Assembly: GCA_963920665.1 (NCBI GenBank)
Contig: OY987267.1
Coordinates: 6,138,001 to 6,202,000 of the forward strand
Direction of reading: 5' to 3'
DNA: 64,000 bases
From: Straminergon stramineum
Lineage: Eukaryota; Streptophyta; Bryopsida; Hypnales; Calliergonaceae
Below are positions 22,912-58,811 of the stretch, in pieces. The first letter of the stretch is position 1. The number at the start of each line of letters is the position of its first letter. The notes beneath the pieces were generated by a model that saw nothing but the letters and a program-made list of their open reading frames with translations, was not told the DNA's origin and did no database searches. The position numbers and the translations under genes were made by a program.

Positions 22912-23078
22912 TTGCACTAGAAGAAAACTATGTTGTCATTAACAAAATCCAGGTGAGATTTTATGTAAATTGTGTTCACTAGAACGCAGTTTTCGTAAAA
23001 CTATGTTTTAGTGAACACAATTTACATAAAATCTCACCTAGATTTTGTTAATGACAACATAGTTTTCTACTAGTGTTG
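22912..23078. mobile_element. CACTA-type palindromic MITE with TTG target duplication
   Basis: Element 22915-23075 (161 bp) begins CACTAG and ends CTAGTG, flanked by TTG at 22912-22914 and 23076-23078, the 3-bp TSD length expected of CACTA transposons. The two arms of about 68 bp are almost perfectly complementary (arm phrases AACTATGTTGTCATTAAC and GTTAATGACAACATAGTT), leaving a loop of roughly 25 bp. The near-perfect arms suggest a fairly recent insertion. Confidence 0.93.
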
Positions 23079-39687: not shown

Positions 39688-41248
39688 GCCCTTGTCCCTT
39701 TCTTTAGTGACACTTACTTCTTCAAGCTCTCCAATGAGCCTTCGTAGCAATTCACTTTTAGTGACACCAAGAATCACGATTTCCTAACATTGCACATGCC
39801 ACACATCACCAATGTTAGGTTCCAATACTAATCACAAATTCTTTGTTCCTCTATGACTCTCATCACCTAATTCCCACAAGACACCAAACATTTGATGTCC
39901 AAATGAAACTTCTATTGATGTCCAAGCGCTTGGTGGTGGCACTATTCACCATTGGTGCCACACTCTTTGAATGGTACCCAACTCCCCACTAGATCCAAGC
40001 AACCTCACTCCAAGATTCATCTTGGGATTCATTAATTGAGACTTAATGTTGTAGCCTAGCGTGAAGTGAGATACCACCCAAATGGTGTTAAGAAGTGCCC
40101 AAGGGCATTTTATCATCACAAAGTTTAGAACTTGTGGTTTGTCAACAATTATTATGTGGTTATTGTTGTTTCATGGGTTCACACATTAATATAGAATTTA
40201 GCTTATCATTACGATGCATTACTTTACAATTTATTGCATTGTAATGATGCGATAAATTGTAAAGTAATGCATCATAATGATGCAATAAATTGTATATTAA
40301 TGTGCAAACCCATGAAACAATGATAACCACATGATAATTGTTGACAAACCGTAGGTTCTAAACTTTGTAATGATGGTATCATGAATGTGGTGGTGAGGCT
40401 CCATCACCAACCTTACCACCTATATATAGCCACTGACTTTCCATGACACCATCTAGGAGGGAGGAGGGAGACCAACCCTCTTCAAAATATACTTTGTAGG
40501 ATTTGGTAGACCTCCCCTTCCTATAGATTACCAAAACATCCAAAGACACACTTCCCCCTTGAGAAAGTACCCAATCCCATGCTTCAACCTAAAAACTAAA
40601 CTCTGAGGGACTCTCAATCTTTCCATTGGAATAATTTTTAGCTCTAAACTCCAAATCCAAAGTGCTAGCCTATTTTTGTGATTTGTTTTTTTTAGATTAC
40701 CTTGGACTAATTACTTTCTCAAATACAACAAGTATTGAGCAAATTACAAGTATTGATTAAGGTCTAAATTCTTTAGGAGGTGTAATTCTCCAAGAGTCCA
40801 CCCCCTTTGTTTGCCCACAATTTCTAGCTCATAGCTAATCTCTCTATGAACCTTCGCAATCTCAAATCTTTGTCTTCTTAGCTTTCCAACAATGTGATTC
40901 TTGCCCTTTTTTGATGAGGGATTCATCTCCAAACTCCCACTTCCATGCCCCACTACTTGGGTTTCTGATAAGGACACTATAAGCTTCAAAAAGTCATATT
41001 TTTTTACCACAATTTGGATCCTTGTGTTCTTTGGACCCACAAACGTGTACTCTCACCAAACTTCCAAGCATGTGAAGGATACTACTTGCTTCATCCCAAC
41101 TAGAGTACTAAACTACCATGTCTACTTATGACTCTTCATTTCTACTCATCTACTATTTTTTGCAGGGCTTGGGTTTATCACCCCCATTGTCCCCCTTGCT
41201 CACCAAAGTGTCATAGGCATGCCTTATAGTGAGGGTTGTAAGAGTCTT
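39688..41248 (-). mobile_element. Degenerate solo LTR inside the UBC pseudogene, minus orientation
   Basis: On the minus strand this matches the 16366-17469 LTR along its length. The 3' end (39693 onward, TGTCCCTTTCTTTAGTGACAC) corresponds to the reversed TGTCGCGTCCCTTAGTGACAC. The middle matches at 40463-40545 (ACCAACCC, TAGGATTTGGTAGACC, CCTATAG). The 5' end at 41170-41243 keeps CCCCCTTGCTCACCAA and GAGGGTTGTAAGA. The flanks GCCCT (39688-39692) and GTCTT (41244-41248) look like a 5-bp target duplication with two C-to-T changes. A foldback MITE interrupts it at 40112-40375. Confidence 0.8.
40112..40375. mobile_element. Foldback MITE nested in the degenerate LTR
   Basis: The left arm (40113 to about 40195: ATCACAAAGTTTAGAAC, GGTTTGTCAACAATTAT, GTTTCATGGGTT) is complementary to the right arm (40300-40375: AACCCATGAAAC, ATAATTGTTGACAAACC, GTTCTAAACTTTG). 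The centre (40210-40290) is itself palindromic, with repeated GATGCATTACTTTACAATTT / AAATTGTAAAGTAATGCATC. It has no ORF, and exact ends and TSD are unclear. Confidence 0.85.
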
Positions 41249-56679: not shown

Positions 56680-58811
56680 CTAATGAAGGGAATGATTTCG
56701 CCACTTTTGTGGAAGAATATCGTCCACGTTTTGGAGTCTAAGTCGTTTTCTGCCACCTCGTGATTTCAGCCTGTGCTGTAAGTCTTCGGCTTCAAAATCT
56801 CCTCCCTGCACAGGCAACCCACGTTATTCAGTATCAGAGGACCTTGCAACTGAGTCATGAATCAATTGTCACACTTGAAAAAGTGTTACCGCTATGAGTA
56901 CCAAAATCACAATAAACCTTGCTCAGATCATGTCCAAAAGCACCGCAACACATATGTCAAAAAGAAAAATAGAATCACAACACATGAGAGTGATACAAAG
57001 TCCAAACTACTCACCAATAAAGGATTAGAATGTTTGCTGCACTGTTCATGCTTATCACGCACAGATTTGTATGCAAACCGCAAATCACAACCAGCATGTG
57101 CGCAGGTATAGGGCTTCAGGTCCATGTGGATTGCTCGGATATGAGTATTCAGATTGGAGTTCTGCGAAAAAAACAGTACAAAAACAGAGGTTGAAAAGTC
57201 AAGAGGCCATTCAAAACCAAAGAAAGTGATTCATGATCTAGAAAGCAAATCGCCTTTGCATCAGACCTAAATAATTCGACAGTATACTGTGAGACGAAAT
57301 ATACAAATAAATTTTTTCACGCATTTGTACCTTGTTGTAACTGTGTAAGCATCCTGGATGTGGACACCTCAACAACACCTGCTCTTCTTGATGTTTTCGA
57401 GCATGGGCTGCGAGGATCGTCTTCAGCATGGACACACCACAGGTTTCGCAAAAAGCAAAGCAGTGTGCAACCTTCGTATGTATTTTTAACTGAGAGCGAG
57501 TCTCAAAAATTTCCCCACATCCAGGCTCCATGCAAACTGCTTGAGAGATTGACAAAGAATCTGCAACAAGACCCCAGAGACCATCAATTAAAAAACTTGA
57601 GGACGCACTGCACCTGCGATCAAGAAACTGAATCAAAACGTCATTAGAGGCACATCAACTTTGAGAGCTTACCATGCACATTATCAATATGCGTCTGCAA
57701 TAAGGACGGATATTTGAACGCTTTGCCACACCCAGGTTCAGGGCACATCAGTTGAGCATCTGCTTTCTTCGATCCACGAAGAGTTGAACCCCATTTTTCG
57801 TGAAGCTTAAGGTGCCTCTGAAGGTTGGCATTCACATTGAATGAGAGGTCACATCCCATCCACGTACAAGGAAACAGGATGCCTTTATGGGTAAGTGAAT
57901 GACGATTAAGATGGTCCTGGCGTTTGTATTGTCTGCCGCAATTCTCAACCGGGCAAACAAATGACCTCTGCGAATCAAGCGACAAAATTAAATTCTCAGT
58001 AATTAGCGGATCTGTGTCCGGGTCGCCGAATTAGTTACATTGTCGATGCTGCAACAATAAAAAGACGACAATCATAAGTGAGTAGGAATTAAAGAACAGC
58101 ACCGGAAGTTCTTACGAGGGTATTAGCCTCAGGAACTAAACCGGCCCAAGGCACCTTGACTTCAGAGTTCGGTATGGGATCTGGTAGGCCTTTGGATTTT
58201 GCTGTATAGTTTCCTGCTCAATCCTAGCAAACAATCCAAGCCACCACATTAACAACGAGATTATAAAGACAATTCAAAATGTAATGATTAACTGATGATG
58301 ACACCGTCGAACAAGCACTGCACGACTCTCTCCGTGTAATATAGAGAACTCCAGGAGAAATGATTCACGACTCTGAATCAACGGTCATGAAACCGCAAGT
58401 CCACACAAATATTCAATTTTAATTTATGAATTCAAAAGAAATCCCCACAACAGATATAGAACCGAAGTTCACATATATTTGACATCAGTTCGGCGCACAA
58501 CTTTGCAAAGAGATAAATTCACTTACATCCTTTGAATGCGAACACATGTGCTGCTTCAGCAACGAACGCTTCAAGTGCAAAACCCCACATACTTCACACT
58601 TGTATTTCCCTTTCACATTCCCCTTCGAGAATTCACTCTCCTCCTCTTGATCGACAACGTTTTCCTTCGATTCAACGTCCTCCTCGCTGCGCAATGAAGG
58701 CGCCAGTTTCTCCGAAGAGATAGCAAATTCATCCTTCCCGTCATCTAAACCCCACGTGCTAGTATCCGCCTGCAAGTCCGAAAAAGCGCTAGAACACCCG
58801 GACTTGCCCAT
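56680..58811 (-). CDS. TFIIIA: Transcription factor IIIA (C2H2 zinc fingers)
   Basis: TFIIIA binds the internal control region of 5S rRNA genes and 5S rRNA itself. Five coding exons on the minus strand, 58527-58811, 57673-57967, 57331-57560, 57015-57161 and 56680-56805 (TAG), give 360 residues. Eight C2H2 fingers are visible, at about 72-92, 100-122, 129-151, 170-193, 203-226, 231-250, 259-282 and 290-314. Family phrases include RQDHLNRHSLTHKG, CGKAFKYPSLLQTH, HMDLKPYTCAHAGCDLRFAY and the basic C-terminus RLKSRGGRKRLRL. The N-terminal extra finger of Arabidopsis TFIIIA is not seen; an acidic Ser-rich region stands in its place. Start: first in-frame ATG (MGKSGCSSAF). Intron 1 carries a 5S-mimic cassette exon that controls productive splicing. 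Confidence 0.95.
58116..58180 (-). promoter_or_regulatory. P5SM: plant 5S rRNA mimic cassette exon in TFIIIA intron 1
   Basis: On the minus strand, 58180 downward reads GATCCCATACCGAACTCTGA, then AGTCAAGG and TGCCTTGGGC. This follows the plant 5S rRNA segment GATCCCATCAGAACTCCGAA, AGTTAAGC, GTGCTTGGGC (helix III / loop C region). It is bounded by an acceptor (CTACCAG before 58180) and a donor (GTAAG at 58115-58111), a 65-nt exon. Length not divisible by three; if included after exon 1 the frame meets TAG after 14 codons, leaving one finger only. In known plant TFIIIA genes (Hammond, Wachter and Breaker) L5 protein binding the mimic favours skipping and so full-length TFIIIA. Function here is by homology. 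Confidence 0.92.

What the first reader, a model, noticed from the sequence alone, without database searches (positions are those of the whole stretch)
58116..58180. 5S rRNA mimic exon (P5SM) controlling TFIIIA splicing
A 65-nt stretch in TFIIIA intron 1 copies the helix III / loop C part of 5S rRNA and is bracketed by splice sites. Inclusion would put TAG in frame after 14 codons and truncate the protein to one finger; skipping joins exon 1 to exon 2 in phase. This is the layout of the land-plant autoregulatory circuit linking 5S rRNA/L5 levels to TFIIIA. The copy has diverged outside the core, so it shows which 5S positions this lineage keeps.
Basis: partly seen in the sequence, partly recalled or inferred. 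Interest (0 to 1): 0.85.

Follow-up and report, generated by a model that had tools for sequence, protein, structure and literature searches.

The report
Moss TFIIIA gene's 5S-RNA-mimic exon
A moss gene for the factor that switches on 5S ribosomal RNA carries inside its first intron a worn but still folding copy of that same RNA, most likely a poison exon that sets how much of the factor is made; this control is already known from land plants, and here it is seen in detail in a new species.

Summary
On the minus strand, TFIIIA intron 1 contains a copy of the whole 5S rRNA (58209-58091, Rfam RF00001 model 1-120, 35 bits; gathering score 38), not only helix III/loop C. The TFIIIA exons join in phase. 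Each of four candidate acceptors gives an inclusion product with an early stop. The organism is a moss with two intact TFIIIA genes and one nearly whole broken copy, all three carrying the element. Between the intact genes the 119-nt element has 1 substitution in 118 sites, against 56 of 426 in the rest of intron 1 and Ks 0.167, so it is probably under selection rather than a decaying 5S insertion. Helices I, II, III and V can still form. Loop E is gone, replaced by a hairpin that holds the GUAAGA donor. This fits the known P5SM exon, which ribosomal protein L5 causes to be skipped. No RNA or binding data were available. New member of a known kind; the rebuilt donor arm is the most interesting part.

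The parts
58527..58811 (-). TFIIIA exon 1 (start codon, acidic N-terminus, first zinc finger); donor GAT|GTAAGT
   Evidence: four moss-like database proteins P0052-P0055 run on from the same point with V, as a read-through of a GT donor would
58091..58209 (-). full-length 5S rRNA-like element (P5SM)
   Evidence: RF00001 1-120, 35 bits; own-genome 5S alignment; fold
58116..58180 (-).
   Evidence: acceptor context T-poor
58116..58223 (-). P5SM exon with the acceptor preferred here (TTGCTAG|GATTGA), 108 nt, stop after one codon
   Evidence: AG conserved in all three copies
58136..58138 (-). TAG stop in frame with exon 1 (acceptors 58180, 58201, 58213)
58218..58220 (-). TGA stop in frame with exon 1 if the acceptor is 58223
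58163..58183 (-). helix III and loop C (CAGAUC...GAACUCUG), the part closest to 5S; holds the CAG of the 58180 acceptor
   Evidence: 22 of 24 columns identical to the genome's 5S consensus; six pairs unchanged in 4 of 4 sequences
58201..58205 (-). helix I 5' strand ACAGC
58096..58100 (-). helix I 3' strand GCUGU; one pair changed on both sides against 5S (A-U for G-C)
58107..58137 (-). new hairpin AGUUC-C-UGAGG / CCUCG-UAA-GAACU in place of loop E and helix IV; holds the donor GUAAGA (58115-58110)
   Evidence: loop E AGUA (motif recalled) absent
57673..57967 (-). TFIIIA exon 2
57331..57560 (-). TFIIIA exon 3
57015..57161 (-). TFIIIA exon 4
56680..56805 (-). TFIIIA exon 5 and stop codon

Best explanation
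This is the moss version of the land-plant 5S rRNA mimic exon (P5SM) of TFIIIA. Shown here: a full-length 5S-like RNA, much less diverged between paralogues than its surroundings, lies in sense in intron 1, with possible splice signals and a premature stop on inclusion with each candidate acceptor. Inferred: the exon is included by default, giving an unproductive mRNA with one finger that probably goes to nonsense-mediated decay. Free ribosomal protein L5 (uL18), which normally binds 5S rRNA, binds the mimic through loop C and its neighbouring helices. It holds the RNA in the 5S-like fold and the exon is skipped, so productive TFIIIA mRNA and hence 5S transcription rise when L5 is in excess over 5S. 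In this moss the donor GUAAGA sits in the hairpin that replaced loop E. The folded, L5-bound RNA would therefore also hide the donor directly.
For: Gene model in phase and early stop with each of four acceptors. Full-length RF00001 match; the C3 paralogue passes the gathering score at 39.8 bits. Two intact paralogues (Ks 0.167, Ka 0.056) differ at 1 of 118 aligned element sites, against 56 of 426 in the rest of intron 1 (Fisher p 1.1e-5), 62 of 486 in introns 2-4 (1.5e-5) and about 34 of 229.5 synonymous sites (6e-6); indels not counted. Both differences between intact copies (one substitution, one indel) fall in a hairpin loop; in the broken C9 copy two of four substitutions break stem pairs, and it gives no 5S match at E up to 0.01. 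Permuting the 41 letters that differ from the 5S consensus kept all three helix groups in 2 of 2000 trials and reached the energy in 42 of 2000. Same site between fingers as a retained stretch in the Ginkgo protein P0005 that matches a 5S translation (score 61, none of 200 shuffles as good). L5-family matches at three places in the genome. L5-triggered skipping in other plants: passages in PMC6164485, PMC5972288, PMC4538838.
Against: No RNA-seq and no L5 binding data. A protein search with the exon-included isoform found no database protein carrying the P5SM peptide (4 hits, all intron read-through). The window copy is 3 bits under Rfam's gathering score. The fold of the 95-nt part is no better than shuffles (z -0.40, 75 of 200), and the 119-nt fold is only modest (z -1.77, 7 of 200). 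Helix III is not in the single-sequence minimum-energy fold; it appears only in the consensus with 5S, which used two of the eight genome 5S loci. In the permutation test helix I alone was kept in 542 of 2000 and helix IV/V in 186. The paralogue comparison rests on two intact genes, and short gene conversion could mimic constraint. The 3' splice site is unresolved: read by eye, the soybean isoform B (P0012) enters inside the 5S-like part, which favours a site like 58180 (that tail was not significant against 5S translations, p 0.816).
Confidence: 0.85

Rival explanations
1. A 5S retro-pseudogene that landed in the intron and is decaying, with chance splice signals and no function.
For: The genome does hold solitary 5S-like copies.
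Against: 1 of 118 substitutions between intact paralogues where introns and synonymous sites have about 13-15%; helices kept although 41 of 119 letters differ from the 5S consensus; same gene and same site in Ginkgo P0005; [quoted passage not shown]
Confidence: 0.03
2. The same decoy exon, but TFIIIA protein itself (a 5S RNA binder) is the ligand instead of L5, making a direct autoregulatory loop.
For: A review states that TFIIIA covers helices I, III and V and loops A, B and E of 5S rRNA (passage in PMC6164485); helices I, III and V can form here.
Against: Loop E, one of those regions, is lost here, while the helix III/loop C part is the best kept (22 of 24 columns) and the same review gives helix II and loop C to L5; L5 is the reported regulator in other plants.
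Confidence: 0.12
3. The same element and ligand, but L5 works only by displacing a splicing factor that promotes exon inclusion; burial of the donor in the hairpin plays no part.
For: This is the model in a figure legend and passages on the engineered HyP5SM cassette, which answers to rice L5 (PMC4538838).
Against: In both intact moss copies the donor is enclosed by stems with pairing probability 0.92-1.0, the UAA itself unpaired, and that arm is where the sequence has moved far from 5S (17 of 34 columns identical).
Confidence: 0.35
4. Identity between the paralogous elements comes from recent short gene conversion, not from selection.
For: The conserved block is short and the three copies are alike (C5-C3 117 of 118, C5-C9 115 of 119, C3-C9 115 of 118).
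Against: Conversion would have to stop near the edges of the 5S-like block in each comparison; the flanking intron parts are only 84-92% identical.
Confidence: 0.08

Closest known systems
P5SM, the plant 5S rRNA mimic exon of TFIIIA (Hammond et al. 2009; Fu et al. 2009, 'anciently exonized 5S rRNA'; neither paper is held, known here through passages of citing papers and recall)
   Same: Host gene, intron between finger-coding exons, 5S likeness, premature stop on inclusion, full-length protein on skipping.
   Different: In this moss loop E and the helix IV sequence are replaced by a hairpin holding the donor (not compared with the published P5SM structure); by reading the alignments, moss TFIIIA has one finger before the element where the seed-plant proteins have two; two intact genes and a broken one carry it.
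HyP5SM suicide-exon cassette (passages of PMC4538838)
   Same: Poison exon skipped on L5 binding.
   Different: Engineered cassette answering to rice L5; its splice-site layout could not be compared here.
RF00001 5S rRNA
   Same: Full-length match; one paralogue passes the gathering score.
   Different: Lies inside an intron in sense, 41 of 119 letters differ from the genome's 5S consensus, loop E lost.

Membership tests
P5SM / exonized 5S exon of TFIIIA | lies in a TFIIIA intron, sense strand, between early zinc-finger exons | tested here: met
P5SM / exonized 5S exon of TFIIIA | homology to 5S rRNA beyond chance | tested here: met
   window copy 35 bits against gathering 38, C3 copy 39.8
P5SM / exonized 5S exon of TFIIIA | inclusion gives a premature stop, skipping restores the frame | tested here: met
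   (C5 and C3; the C9 gene is broken)
P5SM / exonized 5S exon of TFIIIA | 5S-like fold with helix III/loop C kept | tested here: met
   weak on single-sequence energy, and helix III absent from the single-sequence fold
P5SM / exonized 5S exon of TFIIIA | functional splice sites; exon actually used | tested here: inconclusive
   donor GTAAGA identical in 3 of 3 copies; acceptor ambiguous among four AGs; no RNA data
P5SM / exonized 5S exon of TFIIIA | binding of ribosomal protein L5 causes exon skipping | not testable with these tools
   L5-family matches present at three places; no binding or splicing assay
P5SM / exonized 5S exon of TFIIIA | exon-included mRNA is removed by nonsense-mediated decay | not testable with these tools
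   stop lies several exons upstream of the last junction; inference only
5S rRNA gene (RF00001) | score at or above the gathering cut-off | tested here: not met
   window copy 35 against 38 bits; the C3 copy does pass, 39.8

The most novel reading that the evidence does not exclude
In this moss lineage the mimic has become a splice-site-hiding switch. Loop E, which TFIIIA contacts in 5S rRNA, was exchanged for a hairpin that encloses the 5' splice site, so that the L5-stabilised 5S fold itself closes the donor, and duplicated TFIIIA genes are held in common by near-identical sensors.
Probability: 0.3. Interest if true: 0.5.

Novelty: new member of a known kind. Interest (0 to 1): 0.35.

Why it matters
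It extends a rare case of an RNA-mimicry feedback circuit to detailed moss sequence, and shows which 5S parts such a circuit keeps (helix III/loop C, the helix I-II-V framework) and which it can give up (loop E, helix IV sequence). The broken third gene is a natural control. It also warns that genome annotation can call such introns 5S rRNA genes: the C3 paralogue passes Rfam's threshold.

Tried and rejected
Default Rfam search listed nothing; the match needed the E-value mode. A 5.8S search to find the rDNA, and with it a true tandem 5S, found none (39 of 8122 candidates scored), so the genome's 5S was read from solitary copies, which may be pseudogenes. Exact DNA-pattern scans of viral and prokaryote contigs for the core gave 0. 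A search with the exon-included isoform found four moss-like proteins, but all run from exon 1 into the intron and none carries the P5SM peptide. Seed-plant isoforms: of 119 proteins held, 49 had a recognised finger end and a usable tail; only Ginkgo P0005 matched a 5S translation convincingly. P0076 and P0048 (a fish protein) reached p 0.010 and 0.015, about what 49 tests give by chance, and tails that look 5S-like by eye (HWIP, ALDP) were not significant. The original P5SM papers are not held, so exon ends in other plants were not checked against them. The idea that the element follows the genome's own 5S is only suggested: at 21 columns where the moss 5S consensus and a recalled plant 5S differ, the element agrees with moss at 11 and plant at 4. 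A control of the permutation test on 5S pseudogenes was planned and not run.

Full report
What is there. The window lies in a 326-Mb genome (G000, contig C5). Its TFIIIA gene is on the minus strand with five coding exons joining to a 360-aa protein without stops. Best relatives are moss proteins: 68% identity to Ceratodon purpureus and 63% to Physcomitrium patens; the best match among solved structures is a TFIIIA (1tf6). The organism is therefore a moss.

The element. Intron 1 holds, in sense, a match to RF00001 over its full length, 58209-58091, 35 bits, E 1.6e-5 on 581 nt and 0.0018 on 64 kb, below the gathering score of 38. Against four of the eight fetched 5S-like loci of the same genome the local score is 58-76, and no shuffle of 500 exceeded 32; against a recalled plant 5S it is 50 (maximum 29). 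The similarity is uneven, 72 of 121 columns in all: helix III plus loop C 22 of 24 and the helix V/helix I 3' part 9 of 10, but the two 5' segments 5 of 12 and 4 of 15, helix II 3' strand 10 of 15, loop E and helix IV 17 of 34 and the last columns 0 of 5 (against the genome's 5S consensus).

Is it maintained? The genome has three large TFIIIA copies: C5 (window), C3 and C9, plus 3' fragments on C4 and C7. C3 is intact with identical exon lengths. C9 is broken: stop at finger 1, lost zinc ligands, exon 5 missing. Between C5 and C3, Ks is 0.167 and Ka 0.056. The 119-nt element has 1 substitution in 118 aligned sites and one indel, against 56 of 426 substitutions in the rest of intron 1, 62 of 486 in introns 2-4 and about 34 of 229.5 synonymous sites; Fisher p 1.1e-5, 1.5e-5 and 6e-6. 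C9 was left out of these tests because it is broken; its element matches C5 at 115 of 119. The two C5/C3 differences lie in a hairpin loop. Of C9's four substitutions, two break stem pairs; its fold is -26.3 kcal/mol where C5 has -32.6 and C3 -35.0, and it gives no RF00001 match at E up to 0.01, where C3 scores 39.8 and C5 35.

Fold. The 119-nt RNA folds into a three-way junction like 5S: helix I ACAGC/GCUGU, helix II CCAA(A)GGC/GCCUUGG, helix V GCCGG/CCGGU continued by AGUUC/GAACU and UGAGG/CCUCG. The energy is only mildly better than shuffles (z -1.77, 7 of 200), and the 95-nt part from 58185 is not (z -0.40, 75 of 200). A sharper test permuted the 41 letters that differ from the 5S consensus: helices I, II and IV/V together were kept in 2 of 2000, helix II in 40, IV/V in 186, helix I in 542, and the energy in 42. 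In the consensus fold of C5, C3 and two genome 5S copies, the six helix III pairs are unchanged in 4 of 4 and one helix I pair has changed on both sides; helix III is not in the single-sequence fold. Loop E's AGUA (motif recalled) is absent. The donor C|GUAAGA is enclosed in C5 and C3: +1 G pairs with probability 0.92 and +5/+6 with 1.0, while UAA is unpaired.

Splice sites. The donor is identical in all three copies. Four AGs could be the acceptor, giving exons starting at 58223 (TTGCTAG|GATTGA), 58213, 58201 or 58180. In the 19 nt upstream they have 9, 8, 4 and 2 T (pyrimidines 10, 9, 6 and 7), against 5-14 T (9-16 pyrimidines) for eight constitutive acceptors of C5 and C3. 58213 is lost in the intact C3 copy. 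I therefore prefer 58223, where TGA follows after one codon; the other three read to the same TAG (25, 21 and 14 codons). Against this, the soybean isoform B, read by eye, seems to enter inside the 5S-like part, so 58180 stays possible.

Other plants. The insertion sits between the finger ending SHS plus two residues and the next starting R(x)F, as in Ginkgo P0005, whose model retains a stretch that matches a translation of 5S (score 61, none of 200 shuffles as good). [quoted passage not shown]), and that L5 causes skipping (PMC5972288, PMC4538838). Soybean shows variants of exon length (PMC5568362).

Mechanism. Shown: homology, low divergence between paralogues, phase, stop, fold tendency. 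Inferred: default inclusion, L5 binding, skipping, decay of the included form. A review gives helix II and loop C as the L5 site and helices I, III and V with loops A, B and E as the TFIIIA site on 5S rRNA (PMC6164485); loop C is the best kept part here and loop E is lost, which favours L5 but does not exclude TFIIIA. The hairpin round the donor suggests direct occlusion in this lineage. The model drawn for the engineered HyP5SM cassette is displacement by L5 of a factor that promotes inclusion. The two may act together.

Verdict. A P5SM exon of a known kind in a moss, with corrected boundaries and a rebuilt donor arm.

Noticed in passing
window 58048-58073 (minus): A strong-looking acceptor TCTTTTTATTGTTGCAG|CATCGA present in all three copies (13, 12 and 13 T of 19); from exon 1 it would add 81 nt to exon 2 with a stop after 5 codons.
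   Followed up: partly
L021 (C9), L022 (C4), L023 (C7): One nearly whole broken TFIIIA copy and two 3' fragments; the C7 fragment has in-frame stops in its last exons. L022 was fetched but not read.
   Followed up: partly
L001-L008, 1501-1625: Solitary 5S-like copies, 75-94% identical to L001 over most of the unit or partial, pairwise down to 71%; similarity hardly extends past the unit apart from a few distant repeat matches, and most share the same 5' start (L004 does not). No 5.8S was found, so the rDNA seems absent from the assembly.
   Followed up: partly
window 58527-58811 and P0001, P0002, P0005, P0006, P0012: By reading, moss TFIIIA has eight fingers, one before the element, while the seed-plant proteins have two before it.
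   Followed up: partly
window 22952-23038 and 40168-40318: Long near-perfect inverted repeats that match several microRNA precursor models below threshold on both strands; probably small transposon-like hairpins.
   Followed up: no
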